Shown here one piece after another: positions 42,255-54,896 of a stretch of 64,000 nucleotides of DNA. The first letter of the stretch is position 1, and each line of letters opens with the position of its first letter. The notes beneath the pieces are model-generated. The model was not told where the DNA came from, searched no databases, and saw only the letters and a list, made by a program, of their open reading frames with translations. The stretch comes from Nitrospira sp. (GTDB taxonomy: Bacteria > Nitrospirota > Nitrospiria > Nitrospirales > Nitrospiraceae), in NCBI GenBank assembly GCA_030653545.1, contig JAURZE010000007.1, forward strand, positions 1 to 64,000, in the 5' to 3' direction. The translations under genes and the position numbers were made by a program.

Positions 42255-42500
42255 GTTAAGGGAGCCCAGGCGCGGACATAGCTCAGGACATCCATCATAA
42301 CTAATAAGCCTGGTGGCAAGACACACAGAAGCCGCGATCTGAGGCACCTGCATCAGACTATGAACGTACCGAGTTACTCCGGCATCGGAATTGAGATCAG
42401 GACCGCGCCCAGCACATCATTGAGTTTGTAGTCACGCTTCGGGCTGCGCGGATCGGCGTTGTGGCCACGCTCACCGACGAGACGGCATGATGCGCCATAA
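42255..42500 (-). pseudogene. Remnants of c-type haem protein genes in a gene-free stretch
   Basis: The stretch 42011-42516 has no intact gene. On the minus strand three fragments can be read: HNADPRSPKRDYKLNDVLG followed by AVLISIPMPE and a stop (resembles haem-binding DUF3365 domains, YK..DV.GA..I..P); SDRGFCVSCHQAY ending at a TAG (42303-42301), with an intact CxxCH; and DVLSYVRAWAP, like the last helix of a class I cytochrome c. Each fragment is short and they lie in different frames, so these are decayed pieces. Low confidence in the exact family. Confidence 0.4.
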
Positions 42501-42516
42501 TGCCCCTCGTTGCACA

Positions 42517-42870
42517 TTACGGCTTGAGCGACCGGATATAGGCCAGCAGGTCGGCTATTTGCGCCTCTTCAAACGCTCCATCAAAACTCGACATCGCCGT
42601 GCCGGGGCGCCCTTCTAGGATGGTCTTGCGCAACTGTGCATCGGTCTTCGACTGGGTCCCTTTGGCAGTCAGGTTGGCGGGCGGTGGCGTTAAATAAGCC
42701 GCCATGTCGCTGTCACCTTTGCCCGTCGGACCATGGCAGCTCTGGCAACTCTCCAGATAGATCTTCTTGCCGGCCTCGGCATTGCCTTTTGCCGCCCCCG
42801 CCATCGTCAACTCTGTCCATCCCACCATACACAGAACCGCAAACAAGCCGGGCCCTATTATTCTCGACAT
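42517..42870 (-). CDS. Monohaem c-type cytochrome
   Basis: A 117-residue protein starting at the ATG at 42870, preceded by GAGGAGGACGAGG, with signal peptide (GPGLFAVLCMVGWTELTMAG). Haem site CQSCH near residue 41, then the methionine ligand region PGTAMSSFDG and the C-terminal helix QIADLLAYIRSL. It belongs to the same group as the cytochromes at 51280 and 53874. It is the last gene of the cytochrome-rich minus-strand block. Confidence 0.9.
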   Translation of the reverse strand: MSRIIGPGLFAVLCMVGWTELTMAGAAKGNAEAGKKIYLESCQSCHGPTGKGDSDMAAYLTPPPANLTAKGTQSKTDAQLRKTILEGRPGTAMSSFDGAFEEAQIADLLAYIRSLKP

Positions 42871-42941
42871 CCTCGTCCTCCTCTGCGTTTGACACCCTCG
42901 CTCCCGGTACATCTGACGCGTCGCGCAAGACGTTTGTCTCT

Positions 42942-43598
42942 TTATTTCAGCGTCATCATGTACGCCGTGATCGCATAGATATCTTCGTCCGGCAGCGGCG
43001 GCTTCGGGATATAGGCGCCGCTCTCCGGCTCGAAGTCGTTCGGATTCTGATTGAAGCGGTACACCCAATCCGCATGCAGCCGTTCATTGATCTTGATAAA
43101 GGATGTGCTTGACGTCCCTCCCGCATACCCTTTTGCCGTCTTCGCCGGCGTGAAGTGGCAGTTCTGGCAGCCATGCTCCCGATACAGCTTTTCTCCCCGA
43201 GCCAGCTGCTCCGGTGTGCCCGGCTTCATGACGCCTTCCGTGATGCGAGCATCCTTCCGTTTCGCAAGAAACCCTGCCACCGCCTTCGCCTGATCGGGAG
43301 GCAAAGCGAGATGGCGTTTCTTGCGCTCCGGGCGAAAGTCGTAGCCGACGGGGTAATGTTTGAAGTCGGGATTCTGGAGCCACGCCATCAGCCAGTCCTG
43401 CTGATACTTATTTCCAGCCCAGATAAGATCCGGCGCCTTCTTTGTTTTGCGCGGGGCGGGCTTCCCTTCAATCCGATGACATTGCACGCACAGCGACTTC
43501 ACGATCTGTTCTCCGGGATCCGCCGCAAGCCCTATTCCGAACTGGGCCACAACCAGCACCGCTGCGAGCCAGGCCCCAAGCATCCATCTGATAGTCAC
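42942..43598 (-). CDS. Diheme c-type cytochrome
   Basis: A 218-residue exported protein with two haem sites, CVQCH near residue 37 and CQNCH near residue 145. It starts at GTG 43598 (or ATG 43583). A longer frame to 43664 is rejected because it runs through a strong hairpin. Its domains align with the first two domains of the triheme cytochrome at 46750-47760 (shared APDLIWAG, YRFNQNPNDF-type motifs). It probably docks with a membrane or periplasmic oxidase. Confidence 0.88.
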   Translation of the reverse strand: MTIRWMLGAWLAAVLVVAQFGIGLAADPGEQIVKSLCVQCHRIEGKPAPRKTKKAPDLIWAGNKYQQDWLMAWLQNPDFKHYPVGYDFRPERKKRHLALPPDQAKAVAGFLAKRKDARITEGVMKPGTPEQLARGEKLYREHGCQNCHFTPAKTAKGYAGGTSSTSFIKINERLHADWVYRFNQNPNDFEPESGAYIPKPPLPDEDIYAITAYMMTLK

Positions 43599-43624
43599 AC
43601 CACCCCTCTTAGCTCTCCACACCC

Positions 43625-43658
43625 GGCGGCGCCGCAGCCCATCGACTGCGGCGCCGCC
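43625..43658. terminator. Strong 13-bp hairpin between CBS and diheme cytochrome genes
   Basis: GGCGGCGCCGCAG (43625-43637) and CTGCGGCGCCGCC (43646-43658) are perfectly complementary with an 8-nt loop. It follows the CBS-protein stop on the minus strand by 22 bases and precedes the cytochrome start by 27. No T-run follows, so it may be an attenuator, an mRNA-stability element or a rho-dependent end rather than a simple terminator. Confidence 0.7.
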
Positions 43659-43679
43659 AAGCACACGCCGGTCGCGCGA

Positions 43680-44123
43680 TTACATTGCCGGATTCTCGAT
43701 ATCGACGCCCAATCCGATCCATGCCCGCAGAATGTCGTGGCGGGTGATCGAATGCGTCACCTTTCCGTTGCGTTGAACCGGAAGGTTCAACAGCCGCTTC
43801 TCATCCATCAGCTTGAGGGCGTCTTCGATGCTCGTCTCATCGGTCACCGCAATTCGATCCTTCCCCATGACGTCTCCGGCTGTCAGTTGATTCAGATCCT
43901 TCTCCGCGCTCAGCGCGCGCAAAATATCGAACTCGCTCACGAAACCGATAAATTGTCCCGCATCATCGACAACCGGCGCACCCGGTGTATGCGTCGTCAG
44001 CAGTTCCACCGCCACGCCCATCGCATTGTGAGTCCGGCCAAATACGAGATCGTTCGTCGCATGCACCTGCCCCACTGTCTTGAAGCCTCCGACAGGAACG
44101 CCCGGTCTGGATAACGTAGACAT
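43680..44123 (-). CDS. Tandem CBS-domain protein
   Basis: A 147-residue protein with two CBS motifs (about 15-75 and 85-145; DAGQFIGFVSEFDILRAL and RNGKVTHSITRHDILRAW). These pairs bind adenine nucleotides and often sense energy state. The ATG at 44123 has AAGGAGGGG before it. No catalytic domain is attached, so it is likely a regulatory subunit. The gene sits in the cytochrome block. Confidence 0.85.
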   Translation of the reverse strand: MSTLSRPGVPVGGFKTVGQVHATNDLVFGRTHNAMGVAVELLTTHTPGAPVVDDAGQFIGFVSEFDILRALSAEKDLNQLTAGDVMGKDRIAVTDETSIEDALKLMDEKRLLNLPVQRNGKVTHSITRHDILRAWIGLGVDIENPAM

Positions 44124-44613
44124 GAACCCCTCCTTGGTGTTGGTGAATGAAGAAACGGGCACTCTTGAATCCTCTCAAATGCCCTGCCTATTTATGTGAG
44201 GCTTCGAGGTTGAATAGGATTCGCACATCGCCTGCACAATCACTCGATAGGCTGACAATTTGGAGAGAGCGCAAGAGTCATACCTCTCTCTGTGCGTAGG
44301 CTTCATAGAAGAGCACCTGAACCCAACTACTTGATTGAGCTGATTATGAGAGAGAGAGAGTAGCGCTATGCAATGGCGTGCAGCTTATTGCCCCAGACGC
44401 GAGGCTATCGATGGCGCAAAGATACTCATCAGGTCGGCATCAGATGCGGTGAAACGCTACGATATCTGTCTTGGATGCGACTGCTGAATGACTGCAAGGA
44501 AGGAAACTATAAAGAGGGGCACTGCCGCTGAAAGGATTCTGACGGGCGTCGATGCGGCAACCGGAGCCGTCTCAAGAGGATGGCTCCGGCTTCACCGCAA
44601 TGTTGATCTCAAG
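44124..44613. other. Gene-poor spacer with hairpin and a possible 39-aa frame
   Basis: Upstream of the CBS gene and downstream of the cytochrome gene at 44614. It holds an AG-dinucleotide run near 44346-44360 and a perfect 8-bp hairpin, ccggagcc (44561-44568) / ggctccgg (44582-44589) with a 13-nt loop, lying about 25 bp after the cytochrome stop. A plus-strand frame at 44368-44487 is listed separately. Confidence 0.5.
44368..44487 (+). CDS. Possible 39-aa Cys-tailed protein
   Basis: An ATG at 44368, preceded by a purine-rich gagagagag stretch, opens 39 codons ending at TGA 44485-44487. The peptide starts MQWRAAYCPRREA and ends YDICLGCDC. The pattern CP-xx plus C-x2-C-x-C resembles a damaged zinc ribbon (the second Cys of the first pair would be Arg). 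Little else supports it, so treat it as tentative. Confidence 0.25.
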   Translation: MQWRAAYCPRREAIDGAKILIRSASDAVKRYDICLGCDC

Positions 44614-45204
44614 TTACCGGCTACAGGCTTCTCCCTCGCATCCGCCCATTCCACTTCTCGGGCCTCGATGCTCCATGCCGCCCATCCCTCCGCCAGGTCC
44701 CATTCCGGAGCCCATGCCTTCTCTGTGCCCCATCATGCCTGGCCCATGTTCTCCGGCAAAGCTTCGCTCGTATTGGATGATGGACCAGATCTCCTCATCG
44801 CTGAGTTGATCGCCAAATCCGATCATGGCCGTGCCGGGCGAACCGTGCTTGATGACCCAGTAAATCTCGCCTTCCGTCCGATGCCGCCAGAATCCATGGT
44901 GTTGAAAATTACGCGGCGAGGGGTCGAGACCGACTGCCGCCATGCCGTTGCCCGATCCGTCTTTGCCGTGGCAATTGAAGCAGGTGCCTTTGCCGTTGTA
45001 GAGCGCCTTGCCCTTCTCGACGATCTCGGCAGAATTCGGCAACGGACTCGCCAATGCGCGCGCCTCCGCCAGCTTGTCGGCCGGGACGCGCGGCTGCATC
45101 ATAGGGCGCTCGGCCGCCGACAGGGCCGATGCACTCAAGAGACCACAAGCCAGCACAACCGTCAGCATACGTGTGATTGTCATGGTCGCAATTCTGCTCC
45201 TCAT
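44614..45204 (-). CDS. Monohaem c-type cytochrome with Gly/Met-rich tail
   Basis: A 196-residue exported protein. One haem site, CFNCH, lies near residue 76; the methionine ligand is probably in PGTAMIGFGD, and the helix is DEEIWSIIQYERSF. The last 45 residues are unusual: repeated GM/GG units (HREGMGSGMGPGGGMGG), ending in GGCEGEACSR. Such Met-rich tails can bind copper or other soft metals. Its ATG overlaps the ppk2 stop by 4 bases. Confidence 0.85.
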   Translation of the reverse strand: MRSRIATMTITRMLTVVLACGLLSASALSAAERPMMQPRVPADKLAEARALASPLPNSAEIVEKGKALYNGKGTCFNCHGKDGSGNGMAAVGLDPSPRNFQHHGFWRHRTEGEIYWVIKHGSPGTAMIGFGDQLSDEEIWSIIQYERSFAGEHGPGMMGHREGMGSGMGPGGGMGGMEHRGPRSGMGGCEGEACSR

Positions 45205-46262
45205 AAATCGAGCTCCACCATCTTGCGATGAAAGCGCGTGATGATATTGGGATCCGGCGTCAGACGAATCTGCGTCTCTTCTTTGCCCTTGTAGGGCAGG
45301 AGATTCAACACATACCGCAGACTCTCCAGCCGCGCGGACTGCTTGTCATTCGCCTTTACAATGATCCAGGGACTGAAGGTGGCGTGCGTCTTGCTGAACA
45401 TTTCTTCTTTGTAGCGCGTGTAGGAATCCCACAGTTCCTGCGCCTTTTCATCGACCGGACTCAATTTCCACTGCTTCAGCGGATTCTGGCGGCGCGCCTC
45501 GAAACGCTTCGCCTGCTCCTCTTTGGAGATGGAAAACCAGAACTTGATGATGGTCACGCCGTCTTCGTAGAGCATATGCTCGAACTCGGTGACCTGCTGC
45601 AGGAAGCGCTGATGATCTTTTTTGCTGCAGAAGCCCATTACCGGTTCGACTACGGCGCGGTTGTACCAACTGCGGTCAAAAAACACGATCTCGCCCTTGT
45701 TCGGCAATTGCCGGATATAGCGCTGGAAATACCACTGGCCGCGCTCTTCATCCGACGGCTTAGGGAGCGCGACGACTCGCATGGCGCGAGGATTCAAGTG
45801 TTCCGTAAAGCGGCGAATCGTGCCGCCCTTGCCGGCCGCGTCACGGCCTTCGACCAGAATCGCTATCCGCTGGCCGCTCTCCTGCACCCACCGCTGCAAT
45901 CGAACCAGCTCGACCTGAAGCTGCTGCAATTCCTGCTCATACAGCAAGGTCTTGCGCACTTCCTCCAGATCGACCTCTTTCCGCTTCAGGAGTGTCAACA
46001 ACCCTCTTCGAGTGTTGATGCGAATCAGGTCGTCATCCGTCAACGCGTGCCCGGCGACACCGATCGCATAGGCGATCTGATCGACGGCTTTGCTCTGTCC
46101 CTGACGATAGCCATCACCTTGCCTGGGAATCGCGGTGGGAATGTCTTCCAATTCAGCAGCCAGCCGCTCTCCGTCTGTATCGGCGATGGCTTCGCCATCC
46201 CGTTCAGCCCGACGCTCTTTCCTATTCTTTGATTTGCCGGTCGACTCGTCTTCAGCAGCCAT
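45201..46262 (-). CDS. ppk2: Polyphosphate kinase 2
   Basis: A 353-residue PPK2-family kinase. Walker A is GRDAAGKGGT (139-148), and the lid/arginine motif FDRSWYNR lies at 195-202. It uses polyphosphate to phosphorylate nucleotides (or the reverse). A 110-residue N-terminal extension rich in charged residues precedes the core. It is co-directional with cytochrome genes, and overlaps the next one by ATGA. Polyphosphate would act as an energy store when electron acceptors run out. Confidence 0.9.
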   Translation of the reverse strand: MAAEDESTGKSKNRKERRAERDGEAIADTDGERLAAELEDIPTAIPRQGDGYRQGQSKAVDQIAYAIGVAGHALTDDDLIRINTRRGLLTLLKRKEVDLEEVRKTLLYEQELQQLQVELVRLQRWVQESGQRIAILVEGRDAAGKGGTIRRFTEHLNPRAMRVVALPKPSDEERGQWYFQRYIRQLPNKGEIVFFDRSWYNRAVVEPVMGFCSKKDHQRFLQQVTEFEHMLYEDGVTIIKFWFSISKEEQAKRFEARRQNPLKQWKLSPVDEKAQELWDSYTRYKEEMFSKTHATFSPWIIVKANDKQSARLESLRYVLNLLPYKGKEETQIRLTPDPNIITRFHRKMVELDL

Positions 46263-46295
46263 GACATCTCCCCCGCGTTAGACTCGATCTCTACG

Positions 46296-46655
46296 TTAGA
46301 ACACGACACTGCGATCACGTTCGGCAACGGCCTTGATGTAATCCGGCATGCCTTTAATAGATGCGCCAGCAACCAAATCGGCTCCGCCGATTTGCCTCGC
46401 CACCGCACAGGCGCCGCAGACCCATATGGGAATATTTGCAGCTTGTACCCCGGCAAGCAAGTCTTTTAGCGGTGTTAGATTCACACCATGAACATGATCG
46501 GCCGTACCCTTCCGTCCCAACGTCACCGCTTCGTTCCAGAGCCAGAGCACCACGTCGTGTCCCTGCTCTTTGGCCGCTTTCGCCGCGACGAACGGGAGCG
46601 TCGCCATCGTGGGATCATCCGTGCCTCGGCTGCCTGAAATAATAAACGTCGCCAT
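46296..46655 (-). CDS. DsrE-family sulfur-carrier-like protein
   Basis: A 119-residue DsrE/DsrF-fold protein with the core GHDVVLWLWNEAVTLG (about 32-47) and the paired cysteines C80-G-A-C83 in IWVCGACAVARQIG, where DsrE proteins carry a persulfide. Such proteins shuttle sulfane sulfur in the cytosol. The gene lies between ppk2 and the triheme cytochrome. A role in tRNA thiolation is also possible, but TusBC genes are absent here. Confidence 0.85.
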   Translation of the reverse strand: MATFIISGSRGTDDPTMATLPFVAAKAAKEQGHDVVLWLWNEAVTLGRKGTADHVHGVNLTPLKDLLAGVQAANIPIWVCGACAVARQIGGADLVAGASIKGMPDYIKAVAERDRSVVF

Positions 46656-46687
46656 CGATGAACCCTCCGTCCCTCGTCGTTCGTCGT

Positions 46688-46727
46688 TCGTATCTCGCGG
46701 GCGCTATTCACGCTTCACGAGATACGA
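46688..46727. terminator. 10-bp hairpin downstream of the triheme cytochrome gene
   Basis: TCGTATCTCG (46688-46697) pairs perfectly with CGAGATACGA (46718-46727); the loop contains a smaller gcg / cgc stem. The left flank has tandem cgttcgt units. It lies 23 bp past the cytochrome stop on the minus strand and could be a terminator or a dispersed REP-like element. Confidence 0.5.
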
Positions 46728-46749
46728 GAGACGCTTCTCCACACGTTTC

Positions 46750-47760
46750 CTATTTCGGCCCTTTGAACGTCGTCTTTAAATAGGCCATGACATCGGCCAC
46801 GCCCTGCTGCCCGATGGTCAGGCCCCAATAGGGCATGTTGGCGGATTTGCCCATCGCCGCGCCGCCGTGATTGATCATGTTGTACAGATACTCGGTCGGC
46901 ACCTCGCTGAAGTTGATATTGGCGTGGATCGCGGGTTTCGGCTCGATCGTGGCCGCAGCCGGCCCGTCGCCCTTGCCGGTCGCGCCGTGGCACTGCATAC
47001 AGTACTCTTTATAAATCACTTTGCCGCGGCCGGGGCTGGCCTTGGAGAACTCCTGACTCGTCCAGGGCTCGTAGTATTTGAAGTCAGGCACGCCCTGCAC
47101 CATCAAATAGCCGATCACGGCGCGAAGCTGCGGCTCCGTCGCATCGGCCAAAAACTCTCCGCTATGAGGCGTGAAGTCTTGTGGATTCTGCCCGAACCGG
47201 AACAGCCAATCCTGGTTGTATCGTAGTCCGGCCTTCTCTAACGCCGCACTCTGCTGGCCGCCGATGAGCTTCCCGTTTTCCTCGACCGTGTGACAGCCGA
47301 GACAGGCATGGGCCTTGTAAGCCATCCCGCCGAACGCCGCTTCGAACTTCGTCACTTTCGCCAAATCGAACGCCCCGACTTTTACGCGCGGATCCTTGTT
47401 GTGTTCGGCCAGGTAATCGGCAATCCCGTTGGCCTCGGCCTCCGAGACGGTCACATGCTTATGCGCTTCCTGCGATTGATCCCAGCGATACCCTTTGACA
47501 TACAGGGGCGCTTCTTTGCCGGTCAGCCAGCGAATCAACCAGGCCCGGTTGTACTTGCTCCCGGCCCAGATCAGATCGGGCGCCTTGAGATTGAACCGGG
47601 AGTCAGGCTGCCCTTCCATTCGGTGACATTGGACGCAGTTCTGCTGAATCAGCTCCTTGGCCTTGGGCTGATCGGCTCCGAACAACAACCGTGGTGTAGA
47701 CATCAACCCCACCAATGTCAGCAGCGCCCCTCCGACAACTACGCTCCGTCTCACGTTCAT
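46750..47760 (-). CDS. Triheme c-type cytochrome
   Basis: A 336-residue exported protein with three haem sites: C42-x2-C45-H46, C153-x2-C156-H157 and C254-x2-C257-H258. The first two domains resemble the diheme cytochrome at 42942-43598; the third (CMQCHGATGKGDG) is a class I unit like the small cytochromes nearby. Fusion of a diheme and a monohaem module is the simplest reading. It is probably a periplasmic electron hub. A signal peptide is present (VVVGGALLTLVGLMSTP). Confidence 0.88.
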   Translation of the reverse strand: MNVRRSVVVGGALLTLVGLMSTPRLLFGADQPKAKELIQQNCVQCHRMEGQPDSRFNLKAPDLIWAGSKYNRAWLIRWLTGKEAPLYVKGYRWDQSQEAHKHVTVSEAEANGIADYLAEHNKDPRVKVGAFDLAKVTKFEAAFGGMAYKAHACLGCHTVEENGKLIGGQQSAALEKAGLRYNQDWLFRFGQNPQDFTPHSGEFLADATEPQLRAVIGYLMVQGVPDFKYYEPWTSQEFSKASPGRGKVIYKEYCMQCHGATGKGDGPAAATIEPKPAIHANINFSEVPTEYLYNMINHGGAAMGKSANMPYWGLTIGQQGVADVMAYLKTTFKGPK

Positions 47761-47797
47761 GACCGCTCCTTTCCTCTATGGTGAACTCGACTACCCG

Positions 47798-48418
47798 CTA
47801 CTTCGTCAGTAACCACGTGTGTACGTCGGCGATATCTTGCTGACTCAACACCGATCCCCAGGCCGGCATCGGCCCTCGCCCATGCAGCACGGTCTCCCAG
47901 AACAGATCGTCATGTTTCAGAATCGGATTCTTCGCCAGCTTCGGCCCCATCCCGCCAGTCGCACCGGCGCCGTGACAGGCCTGGCAATTATGCTCGAAGA
48001 TGCCCGCCCCTCTTGTCGCCACGCCGACGAGCGGACCGTTGTCCGCCGGCTCCTGCGTGAGCGGCTCCGCTTTTCTCAATTCCTGATCGAGCGGCGGGAG
48101 ATGATCCGGCGCAGCCGGGTGATAACGGGCCGACAGGTACCGCACGAGCAGGTCGGCTTCATCATCGGCAATCTCCGCCCCCCAATGTTTCATCTTGTCG
48201 ACCGTCGCAGCCCAGCGGTCTTTCGGCAAGCGCTGTTGAGCCACCAGATCCGGACTGTGGCACACCGAGCAACGCGCCACGATCAGCCCTTCGGCACGCG
48301 GCGCCAGCGTTGCGCTCACCGACGCCTGATCGTCTTCCTGCGCCGCCGTCAGCACGACAAGACCGGCCACTGCCAACAACACTGCACCGATGATCGCAGA
48401 GGTACGCACTATCATCAT
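47798..48418 (-). CDS. Diheme c-type cytochrome, likely partner of the molybdoenzyme
   Basis: A 206-residue protein with a signal anchor (AIIGAVLLAVAGLVVLTA) and haem sites C50-x2-C53-H54 and C145-x2-C148-H149. Its ATG at 48418 overlaps the sulfite-oxidase-like gene stop by 4 bases (ATGA), as in sorAB-type pairs where the cytochrome takes the electrons. The second domain is close to the monohaem cytochrome at 32485-32865. Electron acceptor from the Mo centre is inferred from the coupling. Confidence 0.88.
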   Translation of the reverse strand: MMIVRTSAIIGAVLLAVAGLVVLTAAQEDDQASVSATLAPRAEGLIVARCSVCHSPDLVAQQRLPKDRWAATVDKMKHWGAEIADDEADLLVRYLSARYHPAAPDHLPPLDQELRKAEPLTQEPADNGPLVGVATRGAGIFEHNCQACHGAGATGGMGPKLAKNPILKHDDLFWETVLHGRGPMPAWGSVLSQQDIADVHTWLLTK

Positions 48419-49599
48419 ATCTGCACCGTCACAGACACACGGTCCCACCCGTTCCACAAGAACCCGCTGGGATTCCACGGACTCTCTTGGGGTTGAACCT
48501 GTCCCGCGGCATCCGTCGCACGACAAAGGATCGTCACGGCCCCGGCCCCCTTGGGCTTCCACAGGAACTGCCATTGCCGCCAGGCATAGGGCTCGTCTTC
48601 GCCGACCAGCCGCGCCGGCTCCCAGGTCTTGCCGTCATCGAACGAAAGCTCCACGGTCGCCACAGCCTCTTCTCCGCTCCAGGCCACGCCCTGCACAGTG
48701 ACCGGTCCTCGCCCGACCTCATCGCCGTTGACGGGTGAAGCGATCAGTGACTTCACGACCATCGCCTCCACGGGAACCATCGACGTCCCCGGCAGGCCGG
48801 AGTTCGGTTGGATGGCCGTGACCGGCACACGATACGCCGTCTGCATGTAATACCCCTTGGCTTCGTCTGCCTGCACCGTGATCTCCGTCAACCATTTGGT
48901 ACAGGAATCCGCCATCCAGCCCGGAGTAATGACTCGCAACGGCGCGCCATGCAACAACGGCAAGGGGCGTCCATTCATCTCATACGCCAGGATCGTGTCC
49001 GGATGAACGGCTTTCTCCAACGGGATGCTTCGCGTAAACAATGGAACAGAGGCCACAACCGGGCGATCAGCGCCTTGGAGTTGCACGTGCTTCGCGGCCG
49101 GCCGTAGGCCGGCTTTGGCCAGCACGTCCCGCAGCCGCACACCAGTCCATTGCGCATTGCCGACCGCGCCGCGCTCCCATTGCACACCCGGCACCTTCGG
49201 ACGATGGAACGCGCGCCCGTTGCCGCTACATTGGACGACGGCCGTGATCGTTACCCGTTCAAACTCTTTGAGATCCCTGAGTGTGAGTTCCAACGGATGT
49301 TCGATCAATCCCCCGACATGCAGCCGCCAATTGGCCTCGGCAATCAATTCGGGCGCGGGCGGACCGAAATGACTTCTTACGAAAAATCGATGATTAGGGG
49401 TCACATAGGACGTGAATTCGCGCACGGGCGTTTCCGCATCGTACGGTCGCATCACGCGTACGGTCTGCGGGCCGGTTTCCGGTGACGCTGTCTGCTGGGC
49501 CAGCGCCGGTCGCATCTGACGCCAGACCGCGAGTCCGCCGATCATAGCGGCCATCCGCTTGAACAGTGTTCGACGGGAGGATGACACGGACTCGCTCAT
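48415..49599 (-). CDS. Tat-exported sulfite-oxidase-like molybdopterin enzyme
   Basis: A 394-residue sulfite-oxidase-family protein. The twin-arginine motif SRRTLFKRM (R9-R10) starts at the ATG at 49599. The Mo-binding domain has the cysteine ligand C124 in VVQCSGNGR, then the VQWERGAVGNAQWTGVRL block; the C-terminal dimerisation domain has ATVELSFDDGKTWEPARL. Enzymes of this family oxidise sulfite to sulfate, or reduce other substrates (YedY type). The cytochrome neighbour favours a dehydrogenase. It overlaps both neighbours by ATGA. Confidence 0.88.
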   Translation of the reverse strand: MSESVSSSRRTLFKRMAAMIGGLAVWRQMRPALAQQTASPETGPQTVRVMRPYDAETPVREFTSYVTPNHRFFVRSHFGPPAPELIAEANWRLHVGGLIEHPLELTLRDLKEFERVTITAVVQCSGNGRAFHRPKVPGVQWERGAVGNAQWTGVRLRDVLAKAGLRPAAKHVQLQGADRPVVASVPLFTRSIPLEKAVHPDTILAYEMNGRPLPLLHGAPLRVITPGWMADSCTKWLTEITVQADEAKGYYMQTAYRVPVTAIQPNSGLPGTSMVPVEAMVVKSLIASPVNGDEVGRGPVTVQGVAWSGEEAVATVELSFDDGKTWEPARLVGEDEPYAWRQWQFLWKPKGAGAVTILCRATDAAGQVQPQESPWNPSGFLWNGWDRVSVTVQI

Positions 49600-50009
49600 G
49601 GATGCACTCCCGTTGCATGAGGATTGAGCTGGATCGTGACGGGCGGGGCGCCGGAGAAAGATTGATGCACCGTGCACCCGTGGGCGACCTTCAACAAGCG
49701 CTCTTTCATGTCCGGCGTGAGACGATGCGGCAACCGGATCGTCAATACCATCTTCCCCACGCGATGAGGTCCCTCGGCCATCTCCCACTCGGCATCCACC
49801 CCGAGGCCGTCACGGGAAATGTCATGCCGTGCGCAGAACTGCCCGACGAAGTAACCGACGCAGCTGGCGACCGAGCCGACAAAGAGTTCGACCGGACTCA
49901 TCCCCGCATCGTGGCCGCCATCTTCTTCCGGCTGATCGGTCACCACACGATGCCGACCGCTGGTGACGTCGTATCTGGTGCCACCGTGATACGCGACCGT
50001 GAGTTTCAT
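49596..50009 (-). CDS. OsmC-family protein
   Basis: A 137-residue protein. The start at 50009 (RBS aggagcg) is chosen; the stop overlaps the molybdoenzyme ATG. The OsmC fold is shown by GMSPVELFVGSVASCVGYFV with its cysteine, and the later HGCTVHQSFSGAP with C. OsmC/Ohr proteins reduce organic peroxides using paired cysteines, and some relatives act on persulfides. A second OsmC gene is at 51846. Confidence 0.85.
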   Translation of the reverse strand: MKLTVAYHGGTRYDVTSGRHRVVTDQPEEDGGHDAGMSPVELFVGSVASCVGYFVGQFCARHDISRDGLGVDAEWEMAEGPHRVGKMVLTIRLPHRLTPDMKERLLKVAHGCTVHQSFSGAPPVTIQLNPHATGVHP

Positions 50010-50110
50010 GTCATCCGCTCCTGCGTCCTTCGTGAATGGAGAGCGCGACAGGCGCGACTCGCCAAGATGAAACTTCCAACCCGTCACGCGTTTCTCGCAC
50101 GTCTCGCGCA

Positions 50111-50965
50111 CTAGTACGGCGTATCCGCCGGTTTGCCGCCCTTTGGCCAATCGTGCTGCTTGCCGGGGAAATCAGGACGCGGCTGGCTGTTCACATAGGC
50201 CGCCACATCGAAAGCCTCATCGTCGGTCAGTGTCCAGCCCCAGCCTCTCGGCATATTGGACTTGATGAACGGCGCCGCCACCGTGATACGAGCCATCCCT
50301 GCCGCAATACTGTAGGAATGCGGACCCCAGACCGGCGGTGCGGCCATCGTCCCTTGCCCCTCCGCTCCATGGCAGAACACACACTTCGTCGCGAACTGTT
50401 TTTTCCCGTTCACGGGATCGGGAATGTGGCTGGAGGTCAGACGTGGGATCCCGCGCCATGGCACCGCACTACCCGGTGGGAGGTTTTGCGACAACCACTC
50501 GATGTAGGCCACGACGGCCTGTAACTTGGAACTATCGGAGGGAAGAGCTTTCCCGTTCATGCTGCGCTCGAAACATTCATTGATGCGATCCGCCAGCGTC
50601 ATCTGCCGATCCGCTCGCGCCCGGTATTCCGGATACAACCGGCTGATGCCCACAAACGACGCGGTGTTCGGATTCAGGCCGGCATCGAGATGACAATTCG
50701 TGCAATTCAGCCGATTGCCCACGTAGGGCCGCCCGTAGTCCTGTGTATCGACCACAATCTTGTAGCCTAAGCGAATCTGCTCGCCTCGTTGATCGCCGGG
50801 GATCAGCTCAGGCGATGGCGGCGCAAACACCATATCGGCGGACGTTAACCCGTCACCCCTATGGCCGGACTCAAGAGTCGAAACGACCTTCGGGGTTGGC
50901 GTGCATCCACCTTCACCGACCAGCAATCCAACCGCAATGACGCATGTCCAGAGATATAATCGCAT
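50111..50965 (-). CDS. Thiosulfate-dehydrogenase-like diheme cytochrome (TsdA family)
   Basis: A 284-residue lipoprotein (signal ends LVGEGGC, C21). Haem sites are C88-x2-C91-H92 (LNCTNCHLDAG) and C195-x2-C198-H199 (CVFCHGAEGQG). Between them is the TsdA signature LADRINECFERSMNGKALP, whose C131 is the position of the Cys axial ligand of haem 1 in TsdA. TsdA oxidises thiosulfate to tetrathionate or works in reverse. The family also contains SoxX-like forms, so the substrate should be tested. Confidence 0.8.
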   Translation of the reverse strand: MRLYLWTCVIAVGLLVGEGGCTPTPKVVSTLESGHRGDGLTSADMVFAPPSPELIPGDQRGEQIRLGYKIVVDTQDYGRPYVGNRLNCTNCHLDAGLNPNTASFVGISRLYPEYRARADRQMTLADRINECFERSMNGKALPSDSSKLQAVVAYIEWLSQNLPPGSAVPWRGIPRLTSSHIPDPVNGKKQFATKCVFCHGAEGQGTMAAPPVWGPHSYSIAAGMARITVAAPFIKSNMPRGWGWTLTDDEAFDVAAYVNSQPRPDFPGKQHDWPKGGKPADTPY

Positions 50966-50975
50966 TGCCTCCCCG

Positions 50976-51194
50976 CTAGCCCTTCTTCCCAGGGGCGATC
51001 GGACAGGTATTGATCCCGAATACAGTCCAGAGCGGGCAGAATCCAATGGCCCCGGTGACTAGGGCAATGGTCCCAACCACAAGCGCCACCCCGGTACCCA
51101 CCGGCGGCAATCCCGCAAAAGCTCCGATTCCCAGGGCAATGACTCCAACAACGATTCGAATGGGTCGTTCCACCCCTCCAACATTGCATGCCAT
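50976..51194 (-). CDS. DUF2892 (YgaP-type) membrane protein
   Basis: A 72-residue protein with two membrane helices (IRIVVGVIALGIGAFAG and GVALVVGTIALVTGAIGFCPLW), the DUF2892 fold attached to rhodaneses such as YgaP. C54, in the GFCPLWTVFGINTCPI block, and a later Cys are conserved. In other species it is linked to sulfur transfer. The start at 51194 follows gggaggt; a GTG lies one codon earlier. It is the gene directly upstream of the TsdA-like gene, 10 bp apart. Confidence 0.85.
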   Translation of the reverse strand: MACNVGGVERPIRIVVGVIALGIGAFAGLPPVGTGVALVVGTIALVTGAIGFCPLWTVFGINTCPIAPGKKG

Positions 51195-51279
51195 CACGAC
51201 ACCTCCCGGTTAAGCTCGCCACTCATCGACCACTTTGCACTCGTAGGAGTCAGGATCTGCTAAAAAGATTCGCTCATTC

Positions 51280-51648
51280 TCAAGGCCCCTGCTTCAATGT
51301 CCGCACATAGGCCAACACATCCCAGATTTCGTCGTCTGATAACGCCGTACTCCATGCCCCCATCGCCGTGTTGGGCTTGCCATCGTGAATTCGTTTGAAG
51401 AGACTGGCATCCAAACGGGTCTGAATGCCCGGTGAGGTCAGATCGGCCGGCTTTGGAACGAGGTGAATTCCCATCGCTCCTTTGCCATCGATCCCGTGAC
51501 AGCGAATACAGGTATTGGAATAGATCTCTCGACCGATCACGGCATCAGAGTCCTTCCCCGGAGCCGGAAGATCTTTCAATCCGCCACCACCGAACCCGAC
51601 CGAGACTATCCCGATCACACCGATGAATATGATTCCGACAACACGCAT
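51280..51648 (-). CDS. Monohaem c-type cytochrome
   Basis: A 122-residue protein with signal peptide and haem site CIRCH near residue 52. The stretch HDGKPNTAMGAWSTALSDDEIWDVLAYVRTL supplies the methionine ligand and the C-terminal helix. It is almost the same design as the cytochromes at 53874 and 42517, so the locus has expanded by duplication. Periplasmic electron transfer. Confidence 0.9.
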   Translation of the reverse strand: MRVVGIIFIGVIGIVSVGFGGGGLKDLPAPGKDSDAVIGREIYSNTCIRCHGIDGKGAMGIHLVPKPADLTSPGIQTRLDASLFKRIHDGKPNTAMGAWSTALSDDEIWDVLAYVRTLKQGP

Positions 51649-51845
51649 ACCACCTCTTCTGTTTACAGGAAAACTAATGCGAGCGATGTGCCATCAGTGT
51701 GAAAGTCAGGTGAGAAAACTAATCAATGATCCCAGTAGGTTAGCTTCTATACCTGAAGGACAGATAGGCGCGTGACCTTCAAGTGGCGAGAAACACCCCA
51801 GGCCAGCTTTCACACACTGTCCCAGGATGCCCCAGTTCGAGGAAA

Positions 51846-52280
51846 TCAACGAATGGTTGGGACGAGGGTGACGTGAGCCTTCATCGAGTTCGAAATCAGG
51901 CAATTGGCTTCAGCCTTTTCGATCAGCTCCTTAGCTTTGGCGGCATCCCCACCGGCATGAAGCGTAATCACCGGCTTTAGCGTGATGGCCGTGAATTGAA
52001 ACTTGCCCTCGACCAATTCCAGCTTTCCTTCAGCCGCACTCTCGTAGGAGGCAAAGGCCAGACCGGCTCGCTCCGCCACCGACAAGAACGTGGTCATCAA
52101 ACAGATATTGGCAGACGCGACGAATAGATCTTCAGGCGACCAGATGCCGTCATGCCCTTTGAATTCCGGCGGCGTCGCGACCGCCACATCGGGCTTGCCC
52201 GCGCAGGAAATCACTCCTTTGCGCTGTTCCGTCCATTTCACCGCCGTGTGATACAGATAGACTTTCGGTTTCGATTCCAT
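51846..52280 (-). CDS. OsmC-family protein
   Basis: A 144-residue protein, second OsmC paralogue in the locus. The core WSPEDLFVASANICLMTTFLSVAE has the first cysteine, and the second is in KAEANCLISNSMKAHV. It has no signal peptide and is cytosolic. It resembles OsmC/YhfA-like thiol peroxidases. Co-directional with the DsrE-like and cytochrome genes. Confidence 0.85.
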   Translation of the reverse strand: MESKPKVYLYHTAVKWTEQRKGVISCAGKPDVAVATPPEFKGHDGIWSPEDLFVASANICLMTTFLSVAERAGLAFASYESAAEGKLELVEGKFQFTAITLKPVITLHAGGDAAKAKELIEKAEANCLISNSMKAHVTLVPTIR

Positions 52281-52333
52281 ACTTCCTCCTAGTCCCTGCT
52301 TTCAGCCATCAGCTATAAGCCATGAGCTCTCCG

Positions 52334-52783
52334 CTACGGCTTGATATAGGCCCATCCCTGTTCCTGCCGCTCCATCAACCGGACCATCGCCGGAACGGTA
52401 TCCCCGACTTCCGGGATCAAATCCTCACGCACGAGCTTCATCGCTTTCATCGTATTCGAACAGGCGGTATACCGCACGCCATACTCCGCCTTCAAGTCCG
52501 CCAGATCCTGCCTGAATGCCGTCGCACCCTTTGCGAGCAACGTCAGACCGGCCCCGTGAACGACCAGTTCCAACTGAAGATGTTCGCGCCCCACCTCCTG
52601 GTAGAGGTGTCGGATATTGTTCAGCGCGCCCCGCTGAACTTTCTCGTCGCCCGAGTTCAGATGCATGACGACACGATGCGTTTGATCCACCGGGATCTGC
52701 TCGCCCAAACTATGCAGAGGCATGGCGTGAAACAATAACAGCACGCCGAACAGCCCGGTCAGGACGATGGACGATTTCCACAT
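52334..52783 (-). CDS. Exported DsrE-like protein
   Basis: A 149-residue protein with a signal peptide (SSIVLTGLFGVLLLFHAMPL) from the ATG at 52783, preceded by a ggggga RBS. The DsrE-like fold is seen in HRVVMHLNSGDEKVQRGALNNIRHL and the conserved cysteine in YGVRYTACSNTMKAMKL. Unlike the DsrE gene at 46296 it is exported, which suits a periplasmic sulfur or haem-linked role. Function is inferred. Confidence 0.78.
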   Translation of the reverse strand: MWKSSIVLTGLFGVLLLFHAMPLHSLGEQIPVDQTHRVVMHLNSGDEKVQRGALNNIRHLYQEVGREHLQLELVVHGAGLTLLAKGATAFRQDLADLKAEYGVRYTACSNTMKAMKLVREDLIPEVGDTVPAMVRLMERQEQGWAYIKP

Positions 52784-52806
52784 ATCTCCCCCCGTCACTT
52801 GCGATA

Positions 52807-53355
52807 TTAGGGTGAACCGCCTGCAACCAGTCGAATTAACTGTGTCCCCGCCCAGACAAAAAACACGCCGTACACCGATCCGAAAAACCAGGGAAAGCTG
52901 ACGGCGCGATGGGCCCACCACTGCCGGTGTTGACGGAACGCCCAGTTCGGCAAGAATACCGGCGGCTCGTTCAGGGGATCTTGGATAGGCAGCCTCGTCT
53001 CATGGAGCTGGTAGAGGCCCATGATCAGCTTCTGCCGATCCCAGACGGGAGACTGTTCGATCCCGCGTAATCGCCACTCCCACAAGGCATTCTGACCTGA
53101 CAATCGCCCAAGCACGATCGCCATCTGGAGACACATCAACACGCCAAACGCACAGAGGAGCGCAATCAACACGGTGAACGACAACGGCAGCAATCCCCGC
53201 GAGACGATCAGGCCGATCACCGCCACGAAAATGGAATGGGCCGTCAGATAGTCGGAGAGCATCGTGTGATAGTCGCGCACCCCGGAGGTCCAGAGCATCA
53301 GCAAGCGCTCATAGGTAGGATCAAGATCGGAGCGATCCGTCGCCGCACTCATCAT
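52807..53355 (-). CDS. Four-helix membrane protein of unknown function
   Basis: A 182-residue protein starting with an ATGA overlap with the VIT-like gene. Helical spans are near residues 40-58 and 63-85, with one more near 155-175. An acidic N-terminal region (LDPTYERLLMLWTSG) is predicted to lie in the cytosol. No domain is recognised. Coupling to the VIT-like gene suggests that the two work together. Confidence 0.6.
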   Translation of the reverse strand: MMSAATDRSDLDPTYERLLMLWTSGVRDYHTMLSDYLTAHSIFVAVIGLIVSRGLLPLSFTVLIALLCAFGVLMCLQMAIVLGRLSGQNALWEWRLRGIEQSPVWDRQKLIMGLYQLHETRLPIQDPLNEPPVFLPNWAFRQHRQWWAHRAVSFPWFFGSVYGVFFVWAGTQLIRLVAGGSP

Positions 53356-53840
53356 GGCCTCCCGTCCGCCACATACAGCCGGACCCAATCACCGACCGCA
53401 TGCGTGAGAGCCACCACGCAGAGCGCAATCACGAGGTGTTCACCGATGACTTTCCAGGGCGCGATTCCTTGCGTCCTTGCGATAACAAAGCTGAGCCCTG
53501 CCAACAAGAACAGGCCCCACATGACGCTGATGAGAATGGCCTGATCGAGCGGCGCCAGCAGAACCGGGACGGCAAAGGTGAGGGCGATGACGAACTTGGC
53601 CAGAAACGTGGCCAGGGTCGATTCCCAGATCTGACTGGCCGGACTATTGTTTTTTGATTCTTCCGACACATGGATGCCGAGCGCATCCGACATGGCGTCG
53701 GCGATCGCTATCGTCAGAATCCCGCCGATGACGATGGGGCGTGAATGTGTCCCTGAATTCAATCCGACCATCAAGCCCAGCGTAGTAATGACGCCCGACG
53801 TCAACCCGAAGCTCAGCCCGGTCTTCCAAGAGACTCTCAT
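53352..53840 (-). CDS. VIT1/CCC1-family membrane protein, short form
   Basis: A 162-residue protein with about five membrane spans. The N-terminal GLTSGVITTLGLMVGLNSG matches the first helix of vacuolar iron/manganese transporters, including the Met and polar residues. It is shorter than full-length VIT proteins (about 230) and lacks their cytosolic metal-binding helix, so transport activity is uncertain. Probably iron or manganese handling. Confidence 0.7.
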   Translation of the reverse strand: MRVSWKTGLSFGLTSGVITTLGLMVGLNSGTHSRPIVIGGILTIAIADAMSDALGIHVSEESKNNSPASQIWESTLATFLAKFVIALTFAVPVLLAPLDQAILISVMWGLFLLAGLSFVIARTQGIAPWKVIGEHLVIALCVVALTHAVGDWVRLYVADGRP

Positions 53841-53873
53841 GACATGACAGCCATTCCTTCGATCATTTCATCT

Positions 53874-54224
53874 TCATCGCGGAAACGTCAGGATATAGGC
53901 CAGCACATCGCGCATCGCGTCATCCGACACAGTGGACTTCCACGCGTCCATCGCCGTATTCGTCCGGCCGTCATGGATGCTTCGGAGTAACCGTGAATCG
54001 GATTTCACCAGGACCTGGCTCGACGTCAGATCCGCCACCGGTGGATCGAACTGCGTCGCGCCATCCCCTCTCCCCTGCGAGCCATGGCAGGCCAGGCAGT
54101 ATTTCTCATAGACCTGCTTCCCACGATAGAGATTCACCTCGCCTGCCGCAAATCCTGGGATAGTCATCGCCAGCCACCAGCCGATCACGGCGACCACGAT
54201 CATCCGCATACGGAAATCCGTCAT
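53874..54224 (-). CDS. Monohaem c-type cytochrome
   Basis: A 116-residue protein. The start at 54224 gives a signal peptide (MIVVAVIGWWLAMTIPGFA). The haem site is CLACH near residue 44, and the ligand region is HDGRTNTAMDAWKSTVSDD. The C-terminal helix is RDVLAYILTF. It is a close relative of the cytochrome at 51280. First gene of the cytochrome block, about 40 bp after the lipid-transport operon. Confidence 0.9.
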   Translation of the reverse strand: MTDFRMRMIVVAVIGWWLAMTIPGFAAGEVNLYRGKQVYEKYCLACHGSQGRGDGATQFDPPVADLTSSQVLVKSDSRLLRSIHDGRTNTAMDAWKSTVSDDAMRDVLAYILTFPR

Positions 54225-54263
54225 GATCTTCTTATCCCCCACTTCTGATAGCCTGCCACTCAT

Positions 54264-54896
54264 CTACCGATTGCACTCCGGCTGATGGCGCACACAGCTG
54301 TGGAGCCACGACGTGACCTGCGTGAGTATGGTCGCGGTTGCCTGATTCGCCGCCAACACCCCCCCGTAAGCATCCTCGCTCGGAGCCTGGGCCACCGCTT
54401 CGAAGGTCTTCGTGCTCGCGACCCGAGACTCCTTGAGATCCACGAGCTGGCTACGGAGCGTGATCCGCACGCGGCTCGGCCGTTGCAGAAACTCCTGCTG
54501 GACAGCGACCCCCGCCACATCCAACCGATAGTCTCCGCGAATGGAACTCGGCAAGGCGACGACCGTGCGCCAGTCACCGGTTCGACCGGCCGACTGCACC
54601 AGCAAAGGCGCAAACAGACGCGCGGGACTCTCGGCCCATTGATTCGTGGCGTAGTATTCCAACTCGAACTGCCGCGTGACATAGACCATCCGCTGCGTCT
54701 CGAACCCGGGCTCCGCCTGTGGCAGGCTTATCAACAAAACCGGCCCATCCACTGGAACGGGACGCCCTTCATCAAACCCTCCGTCCGCGCTCAATTGAAA
54801 GGTATGAACCGGAAGGGCATCGCCCCGAGGCGAGAAACAGCCCGATGCCGTCAATAACAGCATCATCAACACCATTCGTCCAAACCACGATTTCAT
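54264..54896 (-). CDS. PqiC-like lipoprotein of an Mla-type transporter
   Basis: A 210-residue lipoprotein with lipobox TASGC at C20. The mature domain has the pattern of ABC-type transport auxiliary lipoproteins: VLLISLPQAEPGFETQRMVYV and FELEYYATNQWAESPARLFAPLLVQ. It is placed directly after mlaD, as in pqi/yeb and Mla-type operons, where it acts as an outer-membrane partner. The start at 54896 fits the signal. Confidence 0.8.
   Translation of the reverse strand: MKSWFGRMVLMMLLLTASGCFSPRGDALPVHTFQLSADGGFDEGRPVPVDGPVLLISLPQAEPGFETQRMVYVTRQFELEYYATNQWAESPARLFAPLLVQSAGRTGDWRTVVALPSSIRGDYRLDVAGVAVQQEFLQRPSRVRITLRSQLVDLKESRVASTKTFEAVAQAPSEDAYGGVLAANQATATILTQVTSWLHSCVRHQPECNR

What the first reader, a model, noticed from the sequence alone, without database searches (positions are those of the whole stretch)
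50111..50965. TsdA-like diheme cytochrome anchored as a lipoprotein
The Cys between the haem sites (C131, in NECFERSMNG) is at the TsdA axial-ligand position, and a lipobox Cys21 suggests anchoring in the membrane. Nitrospira are not generally known as thiosulfate oxidisers, so activity would be news.
Basis: partly seen in the sequence, partly recalled or inferred. Interest (0 to 1): 0.55.

Follow-up and report, generated by a model that had tools for sequence, protein, structure and literature searches.

The report
Thiosulfate enzyme conserved in Nitrospira nitrifiers
The gene encodes a two-haem enzyme of the thiosulfate dehydrogenase (TsdA) family that most relatives in this family of nitrifying bacteria also carry, beside other sulfur genes, so these nitrogen-cycle bacteria may also handle thiosulfate, which nobody has yet tested.

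Summary
Window 50111-50965 (-) is a 284-aa dihaem cytochrome with a conserved lipobox Cys21. C131 is exactly at the haem-1 ligand position of Allochromatium vinosum TsdA. It is 44% identical to that enzyme and 39% to Marichromatium TsdBA (the two references are 39% identical to each other). A predicted model matches TsdA crystals at Z 31.6, rmsd 1.4 Å over 225 residues. The substrate-binding residues known from A. vinosum are all present. Haem 2 has the Asn-Met pair of Campylobacter TsdA, not the Lys-Met pair of A. vinosum.

A homologue occurs in 123 of 175 genomes of the family (86 of 114 of high quality), including N. moscoviensis and 51 of 61 amoA-bearing genomes. It is under purifying selection, and no genome passes the SoxB or DsrA cut-off. 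Its neighbourhood is conserved and sulfur-flavoured: OsmC, a SorA-like sulfite-oxidase-family protein, DsrE, YgaP-type membrane protein, and in 19 of 60 contexts a split YeeE/YedE sulfur transporter directly downstream.

Best reading: a periplasmic lipoprotein TsdA passing thiosulfate electrons to cytochrome c. Activity, direction and use are untested. I found no report of TsdA in Nitrospira in the library searched.

The parts
50111..50965 (-). tsdA-like gene, 284 aa, dihaem c-type cytochrome with lipoprotein signal
50903..50905 (-). Cys21, predicted lipidated Cys
   Evidence: 67 of 69 homologues have Cys in this column
50690..50704 (-). haem 1 attachment site CTNCH (residues 88-92)
50573..50575 (-). 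Cys131, predicted axial ligand of haem 1
   Evidence: aligned with A. vinosum TsdA C123 (precursor); C in all 68 rows that reach it
50615..50617 (-). Arg117, equivalent of substrate-binding R109 of A. vinosum TsdA
   Evidence: 68 of 69 rows, 1 gap; role from PMC4423706
50585..50587 (-). Arg127, equivalent of R119
   Evidence: R in 63 of 69 rows, Q in 5, 1 gap
50561..50563 (-). Ser135, equivalent of S127
   Evidence: S in 61 of 69 rows, N 6, G 1, 1 gap
50369..50383 (-). haem 2 attachment site CVFCH (residues 195-199)
50288..50290 (-). Arg226, equivalent of R224
   Evidence: 68 of 69 rows
50252..50257 (-). Asn237-Met238: Met is the predicted distal ligand of haem 2; Asn replaces the A. vinosum Lys
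   Evidence: M in 68 of 69 rows (1 gap), N in 66 of 69; roles from PMC5146829
50976..51197 (-). YgaP-type membrane protein, stop codon about 10 bases before tsdA start
   Evidence: PF11127 E 6.1e-18
49596..50009 (-). OsmC-family gene directly downstream of tsdA
   Evidence: PF02566; 56 of 60 contexts, same strand
48415..49599 (-). SorA-like molybdenum enzyme of the sulfite oxidase family
   Evidence: closest PDB chain S. novella SorA, E 8.6e-72; 30 of 60 contexts
47798..48415 (-). dihaem c-type cytochrome next to the SorA-like gene
   Evidence: NCBIfam SorB E 6.8e-14, under its cut-off; 29 of 60 contexts
46750..47760 (-). trihaem c-type cytochrome
   Evidence: 53 of 60 contexts
46296..46655 (-). 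DsrE-family gene
   Evidence: PF02635 E 1.5e-18; 50 of 60 contexts
51280..51648 (-). monohaem c-type cytochrome upstream

Best explanation
The gene encodes a genuine TsdA: a periplasm-facing, lipid-anchored dihaem cytochrome that interconverts two thiosulfates and one tetrathionate. By the published TsdA mechanism, thiosulfate adds to the sulfur of the Cys that ligates haem 1 (here C131), a second thiosulfate releases tetrathionate, and electrons leave through His/Met haem 2. In this aerobic organism I infer it runs mainly as a thiosulfate dehydrogenase, passing electrons to one of the several c-type cytochromes encoded beside it and on to the terminal oxidase, so thiosulfate would enter the chain at the cytochrome c level, as nitrite does. 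It sits in a conserved sulfur-related module (OsmC, often a SorA-like sulfite-oxidising enzyme with its cytochrome, DsrE, in some relatives a split YeeE/YedE sulfur transporter) without Sox or Dsr pathways. Shown: homology, predicted fold, ligand and substrate residues, distribution, synteny, purifying selection. Inferred: activity, direction, electron acceptor, physiological role.
For: Sequence: PDB hits; identity to each characterised reference as high as between the references, 44/39/39%. Structure: pLDDT 86.6, all eight TsdA rows Z 30.1 to 31.6 against 11.6 for the best SoxA. Ligands C131 and M238 present in every row that reaches them; R117, R127, S135, R226 conserved, matching residues shown or proposed to bind substrate. 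Distribution: 123 of 175 family genomes; one clade in a tree of 75 rows, SH-aLRT 83. dN/dS 0.07-0.16 in 8 pairs. Neighbours. No SoxB (0 of 175 over cut-off) or DsrA (0 of 175).
Against: No activity data. The model has no haems. Haem 2 carries Lys-x-Asn-Met as in Campylobacter TsdA, whose bias is toward tetrathionate reduction. R127, described as invariant in TsdA and SoxA, is Gln in 5 of 69 rows. No TsdB homologue was recognised next to it: the neighbouring trihaem cytochrome matches the 5lo9 TsdBA chain only weakly, in its TsdA part. SoxB and DsrA searches had no positive control genome over cut-off. Nitrospira has no thiosulfate phenotype in print that I found.
Confidence: 0.66

Rival explanations
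1. It is a TsdA that works chiefly backwards, as a tetrathionate reductase, letting the cell dump electrons on tetrathionate at low oxygen.
For: Haem 2 surroundings (Lys235-x-Asn237-Met238) copy Campylobacter K252/N254/M255, an enzyme with reductive bias.
Against: PMC5146829 reports that changing these residues shifts bias in complex ways, so the motif does not fix direction. M. purpuratum TsdBA also has Asn-Met. The SorA-like neighbour is an oxidative type of enzyme, and the hosts are aerobic nitrifiers (recalled).
Confidence: 0.17
2. The TsdA fold has been re-purposed: it oxidises or carries another sulfur species (for example a persulfide or thiosulfonate handled with OsmC, DsrE and YgaP-like partners), or serves only electron transfer within the nitrite-oxidation chain.
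For: The most constant neighbours are OsmC, a trihaem cytochrome and DsrE rather than TsdB or Sox proteins. Two Nitrospinaceae MAGs from another phylum also have TsdA beside relatives of the same cytochromes. R127 is lost in 5 of 69 rows.
Against: All substrate residues are intact in the window protein, and the clade is no further from the characterised enzymes than they are from each other.
Confidence: 0.15
3. The enzyme is a real TsdA but serves sulfur housekeeping or detoxification of thiosulfate made inside the cell, not energy conservation.
For: YeeE/YedE-type transporters in 19 of 60 contexts can serve sulfur assimilation (PMC11073785, search listing only). No complete sulfur-oxidation pathway was found.
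Against: The enzyme lies among many c-type cytochromes on one strand, which fits respiration.
Confidence: 0.35

Closest known systems
TsdA of Allochromatium vinosum (PDB 4wq7, 4v2k)
   Same: Two CxxCH haems, Cys ligand of haem 1 between them, R109/R119/S127/R224 equivalents, Met distal ligand of haem 2, same predicted fold
   Different: Window protein has Asn where A. vinosum has the haem-2 Lys ligand (K208 mature), a lipoprotein N-terminus and a conserved tail of about 16 residues ending in DTPY
TsdA of Campylobacter jejuni
   Same: Asn-Met pair and the upstream Lys at haem 2 (K252, N254, M255) as described in PMC5146829
   Different: Not aligned here (no sequence in hand); from a food-borne gut bacterium with a catalytic bias toward tetrathionate reduction
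TsdBA fusion of Marichromatium purpuratum (PDB 5lo9)
   Same: 39% identity over the TsdA part, Asn-Met at haem 2
   Different: The window protein has no fused TsdB
SoxA of SoxAX
   Same: Cys-ligated haem, same Pfam domain; weaker structural match, Z 11.6
   Different: NCBIfam SoxA score 33 against a cut-off of 110; no SoxB over cut-off in the family

Membership tests
TsdA (thiosulfate dehydrogenase / tetrathionate reductase) | Two CxxCH haem sites in one exported chain | tested here: met
   residues 88-92 and 195-199 with N-terminal signal
TsdA (thiosulfate dehydrogenase / tetrathionate reductase) | Cys distal ligand of haem 1 between the two sites | tested here: met
   C131 aligned with A. 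vinosum C123; 68 of 69 rows, 1 truncated. Position only; ligation itself not measured
TsdA (thiosulfate dehydrogenase / tetrathionate reductase) | Substrate-binding Arg, Arg, Ser and the partly conserved second-domain Arg | tested here: met
   R117, R127, S135, R226 in the window protein
TsdA (thiosulfate dehydrogenase / tetrathionate reductase) | Strictly conserved Met ligand of haem 2 | tested here: met
   M238; 68 of 69 rows, 1 gap
TsdA (thiosulfate dehydrogenase / tetrathionate reductase) | TsdA fold | tested here: met
   Foldseek E 2.2e-25; Z 31.6, rmsd 1.4 over 225 residues, on a predicted model
TsdA (thiosulfate dehydrogenase / tetrathionate reductase) | Thiosulfate to tetrathionate conversion in vitro | not testable with these tools
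   no experiment possible
TsdA (thiosulfate dehydrogenase / tetrathionate reductase) | TsdB dihaem partner (optional feature) | tested here: inconclusive
   several cytochromes adjacent; the trihaem one did not match the TsdB part of 5lo9
SoxA | SoxA equivalog score over NCBIfam cut-off | tested here: not met
   33.1 bits against 110
Bacterial lipoprotein | Cys at the end of a signal peptide, conserved in relatives | tested here: met
   Cys column 67 of 69 rows
Bacterial lipoprotein | Canonical lipobox residues at -3 to -1 | tested here: inconclusive
   window has E-G-G-C, non-canonical at -3; some relatives canonical

The most novel reading that the evidence does not exclude
Thiosulfate conversion by TsdA is a widespread ancestral trait of Nitrospira nitrifiers, comammox included: a Sox-free, Dsr-free module (TsdA, SorA-like sulfite dehydrogenase, DsrE, OsmC, and in part YeeE/YedE transport) that feeds sulfur electrons into the same cytochrome c pool as nitrite, so nitrification and thiosulfate oxidation are coupled in single cells.
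Probability: 0.38. Interest if true: 0.72.

Novelty: new member of a known kind. Interest (0 to 1): 0.52.

Why it matters
Nitrospira are widespread nitrite oxidisers in soils, waters and treatment plants (recalled). If they turn over thiosulfate, they link the nitrogen and sulfur cycles directly, have an alternative electron donor when nitrite is short, and would have to be counted in sulfur budgets and in the design of thiosulfate-fed nitrogen removal. The question becomes directly testable in N. moscoviensis, which carries the gene and its module and is in culture (recalled).

Tried and rejected
SoxA identity: rejected (NCBIfam 33 bits against a cut-off of 110; fold match far weaker than TsdA).

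Recent transfer or a stray gene: rejected by distribution, one-clade placement, conserved synteny and dN/dS. The tree is a quick search with SH-aLRT only (83 for the Nitrospiraceae clade), so its deep branching is unsure.

TsdB among the neighbouring cytochromes: the trihaem cytochrome had no convincing match; left open.

Is the window's organism itself a nitrite oxidiser? The narH profile found no NXR-type protein in the own assembly, but found matches in complete or nearly complete relatives (N. moscoviensis G055, G092, G053, G116, G006, G131) and in the closest relative G120; in all, 10 of 18 genomes tried. Fragmented assemblies (G000, G054, G121, G021 among them) lacked it, so I take this as an assembly gap, not shown. 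amoA is absent from the own genome.

Counts I do not use: hits of the neighbouring monohaem cytochromes (called cyc51 and cyt579) reach almost any c-type cytochrome. The small gene first named DUF2892 was read in the wrong frame there; the right frame gives YgaP-like TM, and its conservation was not counted.

The 60 contexts were chosen by me out of the 122 other genomes with a match, not at random. The association of R127Q with loss of OsmC (3 of 4 against 1 of 56, Fisher p 4.6e-4) ignores relatedness.

Papers: passages only were seen of PMC9239080, PMC9326234, PMC5146829, PMC6879331, PMC4423706, PMC11033732, PMC10839748, PMC10203281, PMC12345210, PMC10367259, PMC7608252, PMC8115675, PMC7565560 and PMC11784365; of PMC12342949 passages and section 23. 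PMC11073785, PMC11582611 and PMC9562282 were seen in search listings only. Not every paper in the listings was opened, and most subscription papers are not held, so absence from print is limited to those searches.

Full report
Observation. Window 50111-50965 (-) encodes 284 aa with two CxxCH sites, a Cys at 131 between them and a Cys at 21 after a hydrophobic stretch. Against PDB sequences the best matches are A. vinosum TsdA entries (E 2.5e-54 for the K208N entry, 1.7e-53 for wild type) and M. purpuratum TsdBA (2.2e-42); the next hits are generic cytochromes at 3.6e-8 or weaker. Pfam assigns SoxA-TsdA_cyt-c over its cut-off. NCBIfam has no TsdA hit above cut-off; its best hit is SoxA at 33 bits against 110.

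Active site. In an alignment of 69 Nitrospiraceae rows with the two references, C131 aligns with A. vinosum C123 and is C in all 68 rows that reach it (one row, L018, is truncated). M238 (haem 2) is M in 68 of 69 rows with 1 gap. R117, R127, S135 and R226 match A. vinosum R109, R119, S127 and R224, shown or proposed to bind thiosulfate in PMC4423706 (passages). Exceptions are reported: R127 is Q in 5 rows, S135 is N in 6 and G in 1, R226 is Q in 1. At haem 2 the motif is Lys-x-Asn-Met; A. vinosum has Lys at the Asn position. PMC5146829 (passages) says the Met is strictly conserved in TsdA, that Campylobacter has K252/N254/M255, and that this surrounding influences direction. So the window protein should have His/Met at haem 2, and direction is open.

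Anchor. The Cys21 column is Cys in 67 of 69 rows; L044 and L067 lack it. The window's own residues before it (E-G-G) are not canonical at -3. I take lipidation as likely, not proven.

Structure and relatedness. AlphaFold2 on 37 rows gave pLDDT 86.6, with residues 19-43 poorly predicted. TsdA crystals lead both Foldseek (E 2.2e-25) and VIA-align (Z 31.6, rmsd 1.4 Å over 225 residues; best SoxA Z 11.6). Identities are window to A. vinosum 44%, window to M. purpuratum 39%, A. vinosum to M. purpuratum 39%: the window protein is as close to proven TsdAs as these are to each other.

Distribution. 123 of 175 genomes of the family match at E 1e-10 or better, 86 of 114 of high quality, in 8 of 22 genera. 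In the phylum 115 of 395 match a profile. Named records include N. moscoviensis NSP M-1, a MAG named N. defluvii, and MAGs RCB (contig named Rifle_cladeB) and CG24E. By my hand comparison, 51 of 61 amoA-bearing genomes have it; the own genome has no amoA match. In a 75-row tree the Nitrospiraceae rows form one clade (SH-aLRT 83; quick method). dN/dS in eight pairs is 0.07-0.16. Against universality: complete genomes such as G131 lack it, and several other genera lack it.

Neighbourhood. In the window the same strand carries, upstream, a YgaP-type membrane protein (PF11127) and a monohaem cytochrome; downstream, OsmC, a SorA-like protein, a dihaem cytochrome, a trihaem cytochrome, DsrE and PPK2. 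OsmC and SorA-like overlap by 4 bases and the next pair meets at one base, as in an operon (coordinates). Of 60 contexts that I fetched out of 122 other matching genomes, OsmC is present in 56, the trihaem cytochrome in 53, DsrE in 50, PPK2 in 43, SorA-like in 30 and its cytochrome in 29, all on the tsdA strand. In 19 of 60, N. moscoviensis included, two PF04143 (sulphur transport, YeeE/YedE) half-proteins lie directly downstream of tsdA on the same strand (the Pfam scan was made on the N. moscoviensis pair only); YeeE is a thiosulfate uptake protein in E. coli (PMC11073785, listing only). The window itself lacks this pair. The SorA-like protein is closer to S. novella SorA (E 8.6e-72) than to P. 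pantotrophus SoxC (2xts, 4.7e-41), and shares the FFVR, QCSGN and TAYR stretches with SorA. No family genome reaches the cut-off for SoxB (0 of 175) or DsrA (0 of 175); neither search had a positive control over cut-off.

Mechanism. From PMC4423706 (passages) TsdA works through a Cys S-thiosulfonate on the haem-ligating Cys. Electrons leave through haem 2. With the thiosulfate/tetrathionate couple at +198 mV (PMC9562282 abstract, listing), electrons would enter at the cytochrome c level, where nitrite electrons also enter in Nitrospira (recalled). The direction, the acceptor and the use to the cell are inferences.

Comparison with print. PMC12342949 (passages and section 23) reviews sulfur genes of Nitrospirales, names SorAB (largely lineage IV) and SQR, and does not mention tetrathionate; its one mention of thiosulfate is about soxYZ-bearing relatives. 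PMC11033732 (passages) reports soxCD as prevalent in Nitrospirales without the other sox genes; the SorA-like gene here may be what such annotation calls soxC. PMC9239080 (passages) reports tsdA in Nitrotoga, another nitrite oxidiser. None of the opened papers reports TsdA in Nitrospira; this rests and on an open-licence library only.

Verdict. A real, ordinary-looking member of a known enzyme family in an unexpected and consistent place: a widely conserved gene of Nitrospira nitrifiers in a sulfur-related module. Interest comes from the physiology it predicts and the ease of testing it.

Noticed in passing
L029, L032, L050, L055, L069 (tsdA homologues): Arg127 (equivalent of A. vinosum R119, called invariant in TsdA and SoxA) is Gln; 3 of the 4 such genomes with a fetched context have also lost the OsmC neighbour, against 1 of 56 others.
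   Followed up: partly
L145:3826-8750, L146: Two Nitrospinaceae MAGs (another nitrite-oxidising phylum) have a tsdA beside homologues of the window's trihaem and cyt579-like cytochromes, in L145 fused into a 473-aa protein.
   Followed up: partly
L177, L178, L179, L188: Genomes of another Nitrospirota family (f22) carry up to four TsdA-like copies, some in ORFs of 525 to 733 aa.
   Followed up: no
window 48415-49599: SorA-like gene occurs in 77 of 175 family genomes, including N. moscoviensis and a MAG named N. defluvii, while PMC12342949 describes SorAB as largely restricted to lineage IV.
   Followed up: partly
window 42500-54300: Unusual density of small c-type cytochrome genes on one strand, with two OsmC and two DsrE genes interspersed.
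   Followed up: partly
own genome G000: No NXR-type beta subunit found in a 99.9% complete assembly although near relatives have it; probably lost from the assembly.
   Followed up: partly
L173:5001-5758 (A. vinosum plasmid pALVIN01): A TsdA-like gene split over two annotated ORFs, apparently broken.
   Followed up: no
L151: A MAG labelled Klebsiella pneumoniae with a TsdA 47% identical to the window's, on a long branch in the tree; the label looks doubtful.
   Followed up: no
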